DNA from: Muribaculum intestinale | GTDB lineage: Bacteria; Bacteroidota; Bacteroidia; Bacteroidales; Muribaculaceae | Assembly: GCF_002201515.1 (NCBI RefSeq) | Contig: NZ_CP021421.1 | Location: 124,001 to 188,000, forward strand | Direction of reading: 5' to 3' | DNA length: 64,000 nt | Part shown: positions 54,277 through 61,628 of the stretch, one piece after another | How the letters are laid out: each line of letters begins with the position of its first letter | How positions within the stretch are numbered: position 1 is the first letter of the stretch | Program-made: the position numbers and the translations under genes | Notes under the pieces: model-generated | What the model was told of the DNA's origin: nothing | Database searches by the model: none | The model's input: the letters and a program-made list of their open reading frames with translations, nothing else

Positions 54277-55776
<1,500 letters not shown>

Positions 55777-55786
55777 TTATTGCGCA

Positions 55787-55794
55787 CAAAGTTA
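55787..55794 (-). promoter_or_regulatory. -7 box of guaB
   Basis: TAACTTTG on the minus strand, 28 bp before the start. No purine riboswitch seen. Confidence 0.55.
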
Positions 55795-55926
55795 CTAATT
55801 TTCCACGAATCCACCACATCCACTCGCCCAACTTTTTTCCTTTCCCTTCATTTTTTTCTTCATTTCACTCGCGGCATACATCAATGCATATATCCGTAAA
55901 TCGGCAACGAGGATTCATAATCTGTG

Positions 55927-56550
55927 TCAATTCGTTGTGTTGTCAACCGAGTCGGGCAGCAAGTCTTCCCGGAAGAATTCCTCCCCATCCTCCCGTTTAT
56001 AATAAATGAGACCATACTCCTTACTTATTACAAACTTTTCAATACGGTAATATGGATAATTGGCCAAATCTGAAACATATCTGGCATTTGAGGAATCAGT
56101 AATAACGCAATCGTTTATTATATGATTTCCTATTGCATAGCTATGTGTAACCAACGGACTAAGAAAGTCGTATTCGTCAATAGTGGATCGTGCTCCAAGT
56201 TTTGCACTATACCATAGATTATTTTTCTTAACAGGTCTTCTTATTGAAAAATATCCTGAAAGAGTTTTCAAGCTATCTTTTATTTCAAACCAATAGCCTG
56301 TATTTGCATCATAATCAGTATTACACGCAGAACTTATAAAAATTCTATCGGTAGAGTTATTAATGAATTTTTTTTGATATCTTACCGACACTGTTCGACC
56401 GTTATTGGATTTAAGTGTGATTTCTGAATACAGGGGTATGGAGTTTGTCCATTCCAAATCATCATCTGAAAGGTGTGTCATGTGGATATAAATACACCCT
56501 TGCATGACAGCGGCAATAGATATTACCCAAATAAGTAATTTGTATTTCAT
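55927..56550 (-). CDS. Lipoprotein, candidate immunity protein 1
   Basis: 207 residues. Lipoprotein signal MKYKLLIWVISIAAVMQGC with Cys at residue 19. Then IYIHMTHLSDDDLEW, shared almost residue for residue with the second lipoprotein upstream, and a nearly identical C-terminus (SKEYGLIYYKREDGEEFF...LLPDSVDNTTN). Two tandem lipoproteins behind an RHS-lipase gene suggest periplasmic immunity against that lipase (inference). Confidence 0.6.
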   Translation of the reverse strand: MKYKLLIWVISIAAVMQGCIYIHMTHLSDDDLEWTNSIPLYSEITLKSNNGRTVSVRYQKKFINNSTDRIFISSACNTDYDANTGYWFEIKDSLKTLSGYFSIRRPVKKNNLWYSAKLGARSTIDEYDFLSPLVTHSYAIGNHIINDCVITDSSNARYVSDLANYPYYRIEKFVISKEYGLIYYKREDGEEFFREDLLPDSVDNTTN

Positions 56551-56596: not shown

Positions 56597-56803
56597 TTAA
56601 TCTCGAATATCGTCACTCGTAAGGTTGCCGGCCGCATCGTAGCTGAAACCGAATGTAGTCTCCTCTTTCAGTGCGCCTATTACGGAGTTGTCCATCGTAG
56701 ACACTGTAGACGATGTAGGTGCGATAGTCGCCGCAAGAATCTGCGAACCAACGTTGTCAAGCCGTATATCCTTGATTACTCCAAACGACAGGATATAATT
56801 CAT
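56597..56803 (-). pseudogene. RHS-repeat gene fragment
   Basis: About 68 residues ending FGFSYDAAGNLTSDDIRD, the YDxxGNLT repeat of RHS/YD proteins. No complete domain. Probably the scar of a displaced RHS tip between two immunity genes. Confidence 0.6.
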
Positions 56804-56811
56804 AATCTTAC

Positions 56812-57403
56812 TCAATTCGTGGTATTCCCAATGGAGTCGGGCAGCAAGTCTTCCCGGAAGAATTCCTCCCCATCCTCAAACTTGTAGTAAATCAGCCCGT
56901 ACTCTTTACTCCACACATATTCTTCAACCTTGTTTTTGATATCATTCTTCCAAAGTGGGGGATAGCTCGAGTTTTTTGTCAGCGATAATTATTTCTTTAT
57001 TAGCAATATTACTATAATCTGTACATAGCCACCATACATTGATATCACAGAACAGAGAATCTCCAACCAATTTTATAATATGTATCCATCCTTTAAAAGA
57101 CTCATCGTTATGTCTCAATACAAAATGATATCCGGCATTAGCCTCCTTATTCGGTCCAAGACCTTCGCTGAAGTAAAATCGGTTCTGGGAGTTATTGACA
57201 AACTTCTTTGTAACAACAAGTGTATCCAAGTTGCCATGAGTGGATGTGAAGAATACGGAGTCGCCATAATTATAAGTATTAATCCACTCCAAATCATCAT
57301 CAGTCAATTTTGTCACATGGATGTAAACACATCCATGTGACAAAATTGATATTAGTCCAGCGACAAATAATCTTAAATAAGATCTATATTGCATTATATT
57401 CAT
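56812..57403 (-). pseudogene. Lipoprotein, candidate immunity protein 2, frameshifted
   Basis: Begins MNIMQYRSYLRLF with lipobox LSHGC and VYIHVTKLTDDDLEW as in candidate 1. The first frame stops at 56942 after ADKKLELSPTLEE, but the homologous C-terminus (SKEYGLIYYKFEDGEEFF...LLPDSIGNTTN) continues in another frame to 56812. The frame change falls at the A6 run (T6 at 56972-56977 on +). The 153-residue product lacks the last about 50 residues of the family. Confidence 0.75.
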
Positions 57404-57410
57404 AATATAT

Positions 57411-58004
57411 TTATGGCTTTAGATAATTAATCATCGTGGATATACTATGGTAGGCGCCCCAATTTAAGTGAAATCCTACCGGGACATATTGAGTATATCC
57501 AGGTGAAATTAGCCCAAATAACTCTTGAATATCCGATACAGGGCCTTTCCCTATGCAGTAATTACCATATTGTGGGCCTATAGCGACATAGTTTTTAATA
57601 TACTGTCCATCTGTAAGTCCATGTCGTTCCATCGTCAGTGGACTTACTGCTGCGGGATTAAATGTAACGGCCGGTTTCTGTGTCGCCATACTTGCAGCAG
57701 CTGCCAATCCGCCGCCCAAAGAATGACCCACGAATGTTATTTCATTGCCATCCAAATCTCCAACCAACTTTTTTGCATTACTGATTGCATAACTATATTG
57801 TCCGGCACATCCAAGTAATTGTATAATATCCTCAATTACATCGTTAAAAGAATCTGTGCCGGCAAATACATATGCATATTCTATATTTCCATCCTTTTTT
57901 ACTCTTTCAAAAAGCATGGATGTAAATCCATTAGTCCCTAATGCAGGATTCAGCATTTGAATATTTGTTGGTGGACTCGTTGACCTTTGCCAATGTAGCT
58001 TCTC
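57411..58004 (-). pseudogene. RHS-lipase toxin gene, 3' part (class 3 lipase domain)
   Basis: The lipase core is visible: GFTSMLFERV, YVFAGTDSFNDVIEDI, the nucleophile elbow FVGHSLGGGLAAAAS (Ser of GHSLG) and TFNPAAV. The first ATG is at 57956, but the same frame is open upstream through KLHWQRSTSPPTNIQ to the MITE boundary, and joins the RHS part in frame. It ends 7 bp before the lipoprotein gene downstream. A stand-alone 181-residue lipase from 57956 would lack the N-terminal strand. Confidence 0.8.
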
Positions 58005-58007
58005 TAA

Positions 58008-58168
58008 GAGATTGTCTAAAATTCATATTACTTTGCTTTTGAGAGTCTTGTCGGCGTCTTTTTGTTTATTCTTCGGTCATGTAGCTATGGCTACACTCCC
58101 TCATCACAAGCAAAAATCCATCAGACAATCCTTCTCAAAATCGGTATCATATAAATTTAGACAATCTC
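58008..58168. mobile_element. MITE, copy 2 (161 bp), inside the RHS-lipase gene
   Basis: Terminal inverted repeats GAGATTGTCTAAA and a 3-bp target duplication TAA (58005-58007, 58169-58171). The core (about 58050-58118) matches the MITE at 39032: gtcggc-tcttt, tcttcggtc, a small stem around the centre and ctccctcatcacaagc. Removal with one TAA restores one continuous frame. Confidence 0.85.
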
Positions 58169-58804
58169 TAAGGCTTCAATATAATAATTATAGTTTTCTG
58201 ATTCCATATAAACAGCACCACTCATTAAAGCACCTTCATATGGTGTGGGTTCCAATCCTTCGGGATCTATGAATCTTACGGGATTTCCGAGAGCGTATAT
58301 GTAATGGGAGACCCTTTGTGACTTTTCGCCAAGGGCATCAACGGAGGTAAAGCGATTGAGTATCGGGTCGTAGTGGCGGTTCTGTAGGTCGTAGAAGGTG
58401 TGGGCATCGCTTTTTTCGAGCTTTCCTCCTTGGAAAAGATTATTTCCTGACCAAAAGTAATAGCCATAGCTTTCGCCAAACAGCGAACCTCCGGGATAAT
58501 AGTGTACGGCCTTTGTAAGACTGTCGTTGTCGGCGACAGTACAGCGCACGTTGCCTTGATAATCCTTGACGTAGAAGTAATGGCGGCCATTCTCATAGTA
58601 GCCTGTGGGAGTATTGATGCGCGACAGCTTACCGCGGATATATTCGTAGTTTCCGCAATATTCATATGGCGTCTGTCTGGTGTATGCCTGGATTGCAGTC
58701 ATTGAGTCGCGGTCAGAAACAGGAGGCCATATGATGTCGGGCAGTGAAGCCGCCTTGGACGCCGGCGCCGTGCCGGAGAATGTCTTGCTGCGTTTCCCTA
58801 TCAT
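58169..58804 (-). pseudogene. RHS-lipase toxin gene, 5' part (RHS-associated core)
   Basis: From MIGKRSKTFSGT at 58804: PYEYCGNYEYIRGKL, YFYVKDYQGNVR, YYPGGSLFGESY, then the RHS core end FYDLQNRHYDPILNRFTSVD...HYIYALGNPVRFIDPEG, after which the toxin part begins (GLEPTPYEGALM...). The MITE adds I-V and a stop. Without it the gene would encode 409 residues (58804-57411). The usual long RHS N-terminus is absent, but a promoter precedes this start, so it is a short RHS-tip gene. Confidence 0.8.
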
Positions 58805-58830
58805 GGCAGGAGAGGGTTTTAAGGTTTTTG

Positions 58831-58838
58831 CAAATATA
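58831..58838 (-). promoter_or_regulatory. -7 box of the RHS-lipase gene
   Basis: TATATTTG on the minus strand, 26 bp before the ATG at 58804. Confidence 0.55.
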
Positions 58839-59006
58839 TGTGTTCGTCTATTAAAATGCAAATAAAATCCCGACAATTCGCACGCATCCGACACAGACCA
58901 GAGCAATCCATTACGACAAGCCACCGCGCACCGACCGATTATATATAATGTGGCCGACCTCACGGCCGGCCACATCGTTGTCAAACATTATTATGGTCTT
59001 TTCACC

Positions 59007-61628
59007 TTATTTACGAAGAGTGCCCGATTTGGCACGTATGATATCATTGAGATGGTCGGCAGTGGCACAACCGTTGTGTTCCATCTCAAGAGATGCCCAC
59101 ACAAACGGGCCGACACCCTTGGCGTCGTTGTCGCGCACCGGTTCCGATATGTAGTAGTCAAACGATCCGTCACGCCGGCGGTTCTCCTTCACCTTCGGAG
59201 CAGCCTTGCTCACTGCAGGGCTCACACCCGGGCCGAGGCCGGCCACAGCGCAGCAATCGGTAAGCGACAGCGTCATGTCGGGATTCACCTTGAGGAAACG
59301 GTCGACGATACCATGGTAGGCCTTACGGGCAGGCACCATAAAGCGCCCGTCGACATACCCCTTGCGCACACTCTTGAGCATCGAGTAGGCCATCATGGCC
59401 GAGCAGGTCGACTCAAGATAGTTGCCTTCGCGGCCCGGCTGGTCCATCACCTGCCACCACACGCCGCTATCCTTGTCCTGCCACTTCACCACTCCGTCGA
59501 GAGTGCGGGTAAGCAGGTCGGCCACCTCGCCGCGGCGCCCGTAATCCTCGGGCAGGGCATCGAGTATCTCTACCAGGGCCATCACATACCAGCCCTGGGC
59601 GCGACCCCAGCAGTGCTGCGACAGGCCGGTGGTGTCGTTGCTCCAGAACATGTCGCGGTTCTCGTCCCACGCATGGCGGTTGAGCCCTGTCGAGGCATCG
59701 AGAGTACGCTCATAAGTCTTCTTCAGCTGATCCACGGCATCGTCATACACAGCCTTCTGCTTCTTGGCGGAGAGCATGTGGGCGGTCTTCACGCGGAAAG
59801 GCAGACCCATGAATATGCCGTCGAGCCACACCTGATAAGCATACATGGCCTTGTGCCAGTATACGCCCTCTTTGGTGCGCGGCTGCTTGTCGAGCTGCTG
59901 CTGAAGAGTGCGAATAGCGATGAGATTCTTCTCTTCGGGAAAATTCTCATGCATGGCGGCCACGAAATGACCCGTACGCACATTGTCGAGATTGTAGTCG
60001 GCCAGGTTATAGCCGCGTATCGAGCCGTCGGCACCAATCATCGTGTCGGTATAGCTCTTGCAATAGTCGAGGATGCTGTCGTCGCCGTAGCGCAGATATG
60101 TGTCGAGCATCGACTCAAGCTCAATGCCCATGACATAGCTCCACTTGGGCTTCTTGGAGAAGTCGAGCAGACAGCTCTGGGGCACACGCTGCATCTCCGA
60201 CTTCGTGAGCCACTGGCTCAGGTTGCGGTAAGGAGTGCTGCTCAGGCAGGGCTTGCCGTTGACCGTGGTGTTGGCGAAATTCACCTCGCCCACCTTGCCG
60301 GTGATTTTGTTGTGCTCGGCCACCCCGTCGAAACGGCAGTTGTTCACATTAATATTGTATACGTTGGCCACCGAGTCGAGCGAGTTGAGCAGGATTCCGT
60401 AGCGGCTCTTGTTGCAGGTTACATTGTCAAGATATACGTTGCGCACCGTAGGCACATACCCGCGGCAGCATATCTCGCGCGGCTCATAGTCGAGATTGAT
60501 GCGCATCACCGACTCCTTGCACTGCCCTACCTCGATATTGCGGGCATAGATATTCTCTATCACACCGCCGCGGCATGTATTGGTCTTGATGCGGATGACA
60601 CGGTCGAGGTTCGGACTGTCCATCGTACAGTTCTCGGCAAACACGTTGCGGCATCCGCCGGATATCTCGCTGCCGATAACCACACCTCCGTGGCCATTCT
60701 CCATGCGGCAGTTGCGTATGATGATATTCTCCGACGGACGTCCCCACAGACGTCCGTCATTGTTGCGGCCGCTCTTGATGGCTATACAGTCGTCGCCAGT
60801 GTTGAAGAAGCAGTTCTCAATCACCACACCGTCACACGACTCGGGGTCGCAGCCGTCGCCGTTGGGGCCGTCGTTGCTGATATGCACCCCGCTTACGGTC
60901 ACATTCTTCGACAGCAGCGGATGGATTACCCAGAACGGCGAACGCAGCAGGGTGACATCCTCGATAAGCACACCGTCACACTGGTTGAAATTAATCAACT
61001 GCGGGCGCAGGCAGTCATCGGCTGTAAAGCGGCGCTCGTCCATCTCCACTCCATCCTCGGCCAGACGAAGCAGGCGCGGACGCGCATGGTCGCCCTGCTG
61101 GCGGGGCATGCCCTCCTTCCAGCCAAAACGGTCCTTGCCACACCATGGCCACCAGTTTTCATTGTCGGCTCCGCCGTCGATAGTGCCCTTGCCGGTGATG
61201 GCTACATTGTCGGCCTGGAAGGCATATACACACGGCGAGAGATTCCAGCAGTCGAGACCCTCCCAGCGGGTAGGCACTATGGGGTAAAGCTCGGGCTGGA
61301 ACACAAAGAGCAGCGTGGCGCCCTCGTCGACCTTGAGGTTGACGTTGGAGAGCAACCGTATGGCGCCGGTACGGTAGGTGCCCGCGGGCACAGTCACTAC
61401 ACCGCCGCCAGCCTTGTGGCAGGCTTCGATTGCCTTGTTGATTGCCTTCTGGTTCTTATCCGGTCGGCCATCGGGTTTTGCACCATACTTGCTGATGACA
61501 AAAGTCTTTTCAGGGAAAACAGGTCGCTTCACGGCTCCGTCGATCTGCTTGTAGTCAGTGTCCCATGCCGAGGCATAGGATATCAGCGGAAGCAGCATGA
61601 AGGCTATTTTCAACAGGTATTTTTTCAT
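59007..61628 (-). CDS. GH28 polygalacturonase - GH105 unsaturated rhamnogalacturonyl hydrolase fusion
   Basis: 873 residues with signal peptide (MKKYLLKIAFMLLPLISYAS). Residues about 40-480 form a GH28 parallel beta-helix: FVISKYGAKPDGRPDKNQKA, NDGPNGDGCDPESCDGV and NTGDDCIAIKSG with the catalytic aspartates, then GHGGVVIGSE. Residues about 500-873 form a GH105/GH88 (alpha/alpha)6 barrel: LADYNLDNVRTGH, WHKAMYAYQVWLDGIFMG, HCWGRAQGWYVMALVEIL. Together they would cut pectic or rhamnogalacturonan backbone and remove unsaturated ends. Confidence 0.92.
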   Translation of the reverse strand: MKKYLLKIAFMLLPLISYASAWDTDYKQIDGAVKRPVFPEKTFVISKYGAKPDGRPDKNQKAINKAIEACHKAGGGVVTVPAGTYRTGAIRLLSNVNLKVDEGATLLFVFQPELYPIVPTRWEGLDCWNLSPCVYAFQADNVAITGKGTIDGGADNENWWPWCGKDRFGWKEGMPRQQGDHARPRLLRLAEDGVEMDERRFTADDCLRPQLINFNQCDGVLIEDVTLLRSPFWVIHPLLSKNVTVSGVHISNDGPNGDGCDPESCDGVVIENCFFNTGDDCIAIKSGRNNDGRLWGRPSENIIIRNCRMENGHGGVVIGSEISGGCRNVFAENCTMDSPNLDRVIRIKTNTCRGGVIENIYARNIEVGQCKESVMRINLDYEPREICCRGYVPTVRNVYLDNVTCNKSRYGILLNSLDSVANVYNINVNNCRFDGVAEHNKITGKVGEVNFANTTVNGKPCLSSTPYRNLSQWLTKSEMQRVPQSCLLDFSKKPKWSYVMGIELESMLDTYLRYGDDSILDYCKSYTDTMIGADGSIRGYNLADYNLDNVRTGHFVAAMHENFPEEKNLIAIRTLQQQLDKQPRTKEGVYWHKAMYAYQVWLDGIFMGLPFRVKTAHMLSAKKQKAVYDDAVDQLKKTYERTLDASTGLNRHAWDENRDMFWSNDTTGLSQHCWGRAQGWYVMALVEILDALPEDYGRRGEVADLLTRTLDGVVKWQDKDSGVWWQVMDQPGREGNYLESTCSAMMAYSMLKSVRKGYVDGRFMVPARKAYHGIVDRFLKVNPDMTLSLTDCCAVAGLGPGVSPAVSKAAPKVKENRRRDGSFDYYISEPVRDNDAKGVGPFVWASLEMEHNGCATADHLNDIIRAKSGTLRK

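What the first reader, a model, noticed from the sequence alone, without database searches (positions are those of the whole stretch)
57411..58804. RHS-lipase toxin gene split in frame by a MITE
Joining 58804-58169 to 58004-57411 (MITE and one TAA removed) gives one 409-codon frame linking an RHS core end (FIDPEG) to a class 3 lipase with GHSLGG. It has its own promoter though the long RHS body is absent. The insertion falls just inside the lipase domain, so the toxin is probably off at present and reversible by precise excision.
Basis: partly seen in the sequence, partly recalled or inferred. Interest (0 to 1): 0.7.

Follow-up and report, generated by a model that had tools for sequence, protein, structure and literature searches.

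The report
Decaying bacterial toxin gene, transposon-interrupted
In a bacterium of the genus Muribaculum, a short leftover toxin gene of a well-known kind (an RHS 'orphan' carrying a lipase) has recently been cut by a small mobile DNA element, and damage next to it suggests the weapon is decaying while one likely protective gene survives.

Summary
On the minus strand, 58804-58172 is an RHS core end and 57956-57411 a class-3-lipase-like piece. A genuine 161-bp MITE separates them (58008-58168, 3-bp TNA target duplication). It is one of at least 18 near-full-length copies and shares its ends with an 868-bp IS5-family element. In Muribaculum sp. SC0335_comb_6 the same gene, at the same place, is one uninterrupted frame, so 'one gene, split' is right. 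The promoter-like block is conserved there too.

The interpretation needs changing. The gene is an RHS orphan cassette: its core is 95.8% identical to the interior of a full-length RHS gene in that relative. A second scrap of the same interior lies 1.5 kb away, between two paralogous lipoprotein-like genes that look like immunity genes. No other RHS core was found in this genome. Besides the MITE, the first immunity-like gene has lost its C-terminal frame, and the lipase lacks an acidic residue found in 25 of 27 relatives. 'Reversible by excision' is unsupported; decay with one intact immunity-like gene kept is more likely.

The halves were not joined here. Side finding: IS and MITE also move as one 1,032-bp composite.

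The parts
58825..58883 (-). Conserved upstream block with Bacteroidetes-type promoter motif (TTG-N20-TATATTTG)
   Evidence: 59 bp identical to the same-locus relative L018; motif scan, which also found one weaker match inside the core. The promoter consensus itself is recalled knowledge.
58157..58804 (-). RHS core end (ATG at 58804) of the orphan gene; as it stands the frame stops inside the MITE
   Evidence: frame; TIGR03696 hit; 90% identical to L018 over residues 1-203; dN/dS 0.18 against L018 over the 150 codons 58789-58340
58338..58791 (-). Stretch homologous to the interior of a full-length RHS gene (95.8% to L019)
   Evidence: blastn
58008..58168 (.). MITE, 161 bp, flanked by a 3-bp target-site duplication
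57411..58004 (-). Lipase tip after the insert; a 181-codon ATG frame lies at 57956-57411. Ser and His of the presumed triad present, acidic residue absent
56942..57403 (-). Immunity-like lipoprotein gene 1 (153 aa), C-terminal part lost from frame
   Evidence: homology continues at 56931-56815 in another frame; 49% to the gene beside the lipase in G013
56815..56931 (-). Out-of-frame tail of immunity-like gene 1 (79% identical to the tail of gene 2)
57304..57349 (.). Perfect 21-bp inverted repeat with 4-nt loop inside gene 1, around the lipobox codons
56611..56791 (-). Scrap of RHS interior (92.8% to L019), remnant of a second cassette whose core and tip are gone
55927..56550 (-). Immunity-like lipoprotein gene 2 (207 aa), full length against relatives
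58948..58975 (.). Inverted repeat between the upstream GH28-GH88 gene and the orphan gene, terminator-like
59007..61628 (-). Upstream flank gene, GH28-GH88 fusion; its 3' end is conserved next to the orphan gene in L018
54277..55758 (-). Downstream flank gene (IMP dehydrogenase by eye); 54467-56034 is 93% identical in G009 contig C19
   Evidence: gene name recalled, from no call

Best explanation
The locus is a decaying RHS orphan-cassette array in a Muribaculum genome. Cassette 1 is a displaced 3' end of an RHS gene (core end plus PxxxxDPxGL boundary) carrying a class-3 lipase tip and followed by an immunity-like lipoprotein. Cassette 2 has lost its core and tip and keeps only an RHS scrap and its lipoprotein. 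Inferred working of the ancestral module: the lipase tip attacks envelope phospholipids in the periplasm of a neighbouring cell, and the lipoprotein neutralises it there. A recently active IS5-type MITE has broken the cassette 1 toxin, so at most a core fragment without a tip would now be made. The damaged immunity-like gene 1 and the missing triad acid point to decay rather than a switch; gene 2 may still protect. Shown: sequence homologies, insertion, lesions, conserved promoter block, lipase-lipoprotein linkage. Inferred: toxicity, immunity function, delivery, current expression.
For: Uninterrupted same-locus relative, with both flanks conserved. Two window stretches are 95.8% and 92.8% identical to the interior of the full-length RHS L019, in the opposite order. 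A full RHS gene, a small gene and an RHS 3' fragment stand in tandem in L020. The tip diverges at the boundary: 26-29 of 30 residues identical per block up to residue 180, 17 of 30 in the next; lipase 50%. In 397 family genomes, lipase relatives occur in 36 and relatives of gene 2 in 21, with 12 shared (Fisher p 8e-9, kinship among genomes not corrected for); in 11 of the 12 they are neighbours on one contig. Best solved relative is the lipase Tle, whose immunity protein is a periplasmic lipoprotein (PMC11470151, passages). Lesions. No second RHS core found in the genome.
Against: The core evolves under apparent constraint (dN/dS 0.18) and the promoter block is conserved, which argues that the short gene was doing something until recently and is not plain debris; gene conversion from full-length RHS genes could mimic the constraint. 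The triad position is also non-acidic in 2 of 27 relatives, so its loss may not abolish activity. 24 of 36 genomes with the lipase show no detected relative of gene 2, and 9 of 21 the reverse. No toxicity or immunity was measured.
Confidence: 0.8

Rival explanations
1. Reversible switch: the MITE keeps an intact, expressed short RHS-lipase toxin off and precise excision by the resident IS5 transposase turns it on again in some cells.
For: Recent insertion (161/161 identical to another copy). The parent IS is present in six 868-bp copies; the transposase frame is open in the one read (L115) and the other five differ from it by one base. Promoter block conserved.
Against: Separate lesions in immunity-like gene 1 and in the presumed triad; no delivery body found in the genome; no empty allele seen, though no second strain was available; an active toxin beside a damaged gene 1 should endanger the cell.
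Confidence: 0.07
2. Body-less RHS toxin: the short gene with its own promoter is a self-standing expressed toxin class, maintained at this locus and re-tipped by recombination; the MITE copy is one lineage's loss.
For: Same short gene, start codon and promoter block in L018 with a different tip; dN/dS 0.18; related genera have short lipase genes with signal-peptide-like starts and only an RHS-core end (L012, L024, L025, L026, L033, by eye).
Against: No signal peptide in the window gene (by eye); the core is so close to a full-length RHS that simple displacement explains it; only two genomes show the short gene at this locus.
Confidence: 0.15
3. Chance juxtaposition of an RHS fragment and an unrelated lipase gene, with the MITE between two genes.
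For: Both pieces have their own ATG frames; a few lipase relatives stand without an RHS part.
Against: Fused in the uninterrupted same-locus relative and in others.
Confidence: 0.02

Closest known systems
Rhs/CdiA orphan toxin-immunity modules (PMC3150448, abstract and passages; PMC3967940, abstract and passages)
   Same: Displaced 3' end of a full-length gene, boundary motif PxxxxDPxGL, variable tip, linked small gene, further cassettes downstream.
   Different: Enterobacterial orphans usually lack initiation signals; this one has a conserved start codon and promoter-like block. It is interrupted, and no main rhs gene was found in the genome.
T6SS lipase effector Tle with lipoprotein immunity Tli of Enterobacter cloacae (7ubz/9cys; PMC11470151, passages)
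   Same: Class-3-lipase-like domain with GHSLGG; putative immunity partner is a predicted lipoprotein.
   Different: Similarity covers about 80 residues (E 3.3e-6); Tli is made of ankyrin repeats, whereas the window lipoproteins match no Pfam family above its cut-off; delivery here is unknown.
Lipase-like polymorphic toxin domains (Tox-ABhydrolase) and lipobox immunity proteins (PMC3482391, passages)
   Same: Alpha/beta-hydrolase tips on modular toxins, tip-immunity cassettes, strings of immunity genes.
   Different: No direct sequence comparison with those families was made here.
Orphan immunity gene arrays (V. cholerae, PMC5361080, abstract and outline; Bacteroidales rAID, PMC12247911, abstract and outline)
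   Same: Immunity genes kept after the effector is displaced or lost.
   Different: Here toxin remains are still present and the array is two genes long; recombinase linkage was not examined.
IS5-family elements and their MITEs
   Same: Shared ends GAGATTGTCTAAA, 3-bp TNA duplication, transposase NF033580 at 176.5 bits.
   Different: Here IS and MITE also travel as one composite.

Membership tests
RHS orphan CT/immunity module | Fragment homologous to the 3' part of a full-length rhs gene | tested here: met
   95.8% over 454 bp to L019
RHS orphan CT/immunity module | PxxxxDPxGL boundary with divergence of the tip after it | tested here: met
   PVRFIDPEGL in the frame; identity falls after residue 180
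RHS orphan CT/immunity module | Cognate immunity gene directly downstream | tested here: inconclusive
   Linked family, 12 shared genomes of 36 and 21; immunity function not testable here
RHS orphan CT/immunity module | Usually no translation initiation signal (typical, not required) | tested here: not met
   Conserved ATG and promoter-like block
Functional class-3 lipase / Tle-like toxin | Lipase_3 domain with GxSxG | tested here: inconclusive
   21.2 bits, cut-off 22; GHSLGG present; 7ubz at E 3.3e-6
Functional class-3 lipase / Tle-like toxin | Ser-acid-His triad | tested here: not met
   Ser and His kept; acid column D in 22 of 27 and E in 3 of 27 relatives, neither in the window (the E count is by eye, and that this is the catalytic acid is inferred)
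Functional class-3 lipase / Tle-like toxin | Toxic in the periplasm | not testable with these tools
   Needs an assay
MITE of an IS5-family element | Shared terminal inverted repeats, target duplication, no transposase, many copies | tested here: met
   Outer duplications match in 13 of 13 two-ended units among the 16 loci (3 had one end only); copies; transposase of the parent
Phase-variable excision switch | Both states (with and without element) in one species | not tested
   One genome per species available; no reads

The most novel reading that the evidence does not exclude
Muribaculum keeps a self-standing, promoter-driven short RHS toxin ('body-less RHS') under purifying selection at this locus, re-tipped by recombination. 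Together with the signal-peptide lipase genes of related genera, this would be a Bacteroidales toxin architecture that dispenses with the RHS cocoon, and the MITE copy marks one lineage giving up attack while retaining an immunity lipoprotein of a family for which no curated model was hit.
Probability: 0.2. Interest if true: 0.55.

Novelty: new member of a known kind. Interest (0 to 1): 0.33.

Why it matters
It shows in one locus how a polymorphic-toxin cassette decays in a commensal: delivery body gone, toxin broken by a mobile element, one immunity-like gene damaged and another whole. It also points to a lipoprotein family that stands beside lipase tips in at least 11 genomes of the window's family. 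Its two window members hit no Pfam or NCBIfam model above cut-off, and gene 2 hit nothing in PADLOC. It would be the natural immunity partner to test.

Tried and rejected
Rejected: two separate genes with a MITE between them (L018, L013 and others are fusions). Rejected: assembly artefact (single-contig genome, proper target duplication, 161/161 copy elsewhere).

Led nowhere: a T6SS search with PF17642 found nothing in the genome, but nothing rang in the controls either, so absence is not shown. Literature searches: 'muribaculum intestinale' with 'rhs' gave 0 papers; 'rhs', 'insertion sequence', 'inactivat', 'orphan toxin' gave one review, seen as a listing; 'mite', 'is5 family', 'bacteroidetes', 'miniature inverted' gave 3 and the composite search 15, seen as listings; some searches gave background papers. 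I make no claim that anything is absent from print. PADLOC gave nothing for three proteins.

No structural claim is made.

Limits: the immunity-motif expression (14 of 29 loci) was written after seeing the sequences, so it describes and does not test. The co-occurrence count assumes that searches drew the same 397 genomes; the 12 shared genomes and 11 neighbours were counted by eye from the two lists. The family name Muribaculaceae is recalled; the genus comes from the named contigs of G009 and its 'same genus' label.

Full report
What is there. On the minus strand of the window, between a GH28-GH88 gene (59007-61628) and an IMP dehydrogenase gene (54277-55758; name by eye, from no call), lie: a promoter-like block, an RHS core end, a MITE, a lipase piece, a first lipoprotein-like gene, a scrap of RHS interior, and a second lipoprotein-like gene. 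The RHS part passes the TIGR03696 cut-off (48.5 against 32.5 bits) but hits no Pfam family at E 0.1. The lipase piece scores 21.2 bits with Pfam Lipase_3, just under the cut-off of 22, and its best solved relative is the T6SS lipase effector 7ubz (E 3.3e-6).

The insert. The element is 161 bp (58008-58168), flanked by TAA on both sides. One search lists 18 near-full-length copies in the genome, this one included, plus one split copy and shorter pieces (40 of 72 candidates scored). The 13-bp end occurs exactly, or with one mismatch, 49 times against 3 for the reversed control. Pairs of ends define 161-bp MITEs and 868-bp elements; the one whose frames I read (L115) encodes a 257-aa IS5-family transposase (NF033580, 176.5 bits). 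Of 16 loci examined, 13 hold two-ended units, and in 13 of 13 the outer 3-bp flanks match as TNA; 3 loci have one end only, and copies with more diverged ends were not examined. The window copy is identical over 161 of 161 bases to the copy at 1,505,128, so the insertion is recent and the family was recently active.

One gene before the insertion. Of 99 genomes searched first, 5 (own included) have a lipase relative; of 397 family genomes, 36 do. In the same-genus MAG G009 (Muribaculum sp. SC0335_comb_6; L011 is contained in the named contig L018) the same gene stands at the same place in one uninterrupted frame of 437 codons from stop to contig end. The upstream flank is conserved, and the other flank is found at the start of contig C19 at 93% over 54467-56034. 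In G013 the same core-lipase-lipoprotein order appears, but its core is frame-shifted in the MAG. Of 29 lipase relatives examined, 15 show an RHS-core end by a loose expression and five more by eye. L029, L031, L039-L042, L044 and L046 show none, so lipases of this kind also exist without RHS, though not at this locus.

It is an orphan cassette. The same MAG G009 also carries a full-length-type RHS gene (L019, an open frame of 1,422 codons cut at its start; DUF6443 at 46.5 bits; its Rhs core scores 30.7 bits, just under the 32.5 cut-off). Window 58338-58791 is 95.8% identical to one part of its interior and window 56611-56791 is 92.8% identical to an earlier part. In the window the two lie in the opposite order, with the lipase and the first lipoprotein gene between them; this is what tandem 3' cassettes look like after loss of their bodies. 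G013 shows a less decayed arrangement: RHS gene, a small gene, then a second RHS 3' fragment (L020). In the window genome only one Rhs core match was found. At the place where G009 has its full-length RHS, the window genome keeps the neighbouring gene (92% identical), but blastn found no match to the RHS part of L019 in the 13.6 kb fetched.

Tip exchange and constraint. Against L018 the protein is 26-29 of 30 identical per block up to residue 180 and 17 of 30 in the next block; the lipase part is 50% identical. Over 150 core codons dN/dS is 0.18 against L018 and 0.20 against L019 (10.5 and 8 non-synonymous differences, so small numbers, and gene conversion with full-length RHS genes could lower the ratio). 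The 59-bp block 58883-58825, with a Bacteroidetes-type promoter motif (consensus recalled), is identical in L018. This is unlike the typical enterobacterial orphan, said to usually lack initiation signals (PMC3967940, passages).

Immunity partners. The two lipoprotein-like genes belong to one family (30% identical to each other; gene 2 is 35% identical to the gene beside the lipase in L021). Relatives of gene 2 occur in 21 of 397 genomes, lipase relatives in 36 of 397, both in 12 (expected about 2; Fisher p 8e-9; the genomes are related, so the p-value is too small). In 11 of those 12 the two lie side by side; in G009 the assembly is broken there. Nine genomes have the lipoprotein family without a detected lipase and 24 the reverse. 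Some lipase relatives have other downstream genes (L013, L030, L031, L034, L037, L038). The E. cloacae Tle/Tli pair, where the mature immunity protein is a periplasmic lipoprotein (PMC11470151, passages), is the functional analogy behind 'periplasmic lipase'.

Signs of decay. (1) The MITE. (2) Immunity-like gene 1 ends early; its C-terminal homology continues in another frame. (3) The presumed catalytic acidic position, D in 22 and E in 3 of 27 relatives, is not acidic in the window copy, while Ser and His are kept. Two relatives also lack it, so this is suggestive only. (4) Cassette 2 has no core or tip. (5) Gene 1 contains a perfect 21-bp hairpin absent from the 29 other family entries (best arms 4-8; one of the 29 is gene 2 met a second time). 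The 120-nt stretch folds at -39.9 kcal/mol, z -5.6. In the window as a whole, arms of 19 or more occur in 4 of 638 overlapping 200-nt stretches, so long hairpins are rare but not unique to this gene, and whether this one does harm is unknown. Gene 2 is full length.

Judgement. The most economical mechanism is ordinary cassette displacement and decay, with a mobile element delivering one of several blows and one immunity-like gene surviving. A reversible switch is possible in principle, because a transposase source is present, but nothing here supports it and the other lesions argue against it. Delivery is unknown: the T6SS test was uninformative.

Noticed in passing
Window genome, outside the window: 308947-309978, 2321863-2322894, 2558077-2559108, 582706-583737 (loci L113, L116, L117, L114): Four of six 868-bp IS5-family copies sit 3 bp from a MITE, always at the same IS end. 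Three of the pairs are identical over 1,032 bp with the same inner spacer, and their outer duplications match each other but differ from that spacer in two cases, so IS plus MITE has moved as one unit. The fourth has the MITE reversed and looks like stepwise insertion. Among 14 genus genomes the whole composite was seen only in this one (where not all candidates were scored).
   Followed up: partly
57304-57349: Perfect 21-bp inverted repeat with 4-nt loop in the coding sequence of immunity-like gene 1, around the lipobox; not seen in the 29 other family entries. Possibly a template-switch mutation.
   Followed up: partly
L012, L024, L025, L026, L033: Related genera have 350-382-codon lipase genes starting with a signal-peptide-like stretch (by eye) and keeping only the very end of an RHS core, each followed by the lipoprotein family. 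A short, probably secreted form of the toxin.
   Followed up: partly
G301 contig C2: 31110-32998 (L171, next to the lipase of L032) and L025: Tandem arrays of three and two paralogous immunity-like lipoproteins behind one lipase gene.
   Followed up: no
L119 (genome 1030336-1032446): A copy of the 868-bp IS5-type element is itself interrupted by another DDE transposase element (DDE_Tnp_1_3).
   Followed up: no
Genome 2533781-2533941 (L133): Another MITE copy lies about 350 bp upstream of the gene next to which the relative carries its full-length RHS; no RHS DNA was found there.
   Followed up: partly
58095-58126 within the MITE: A 24-32-bp interior piece of the MITE matches 18 further genome places at 88-96% identity with no match to the MITE ends, suggesting a related second repeat family.
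   Followed up: no
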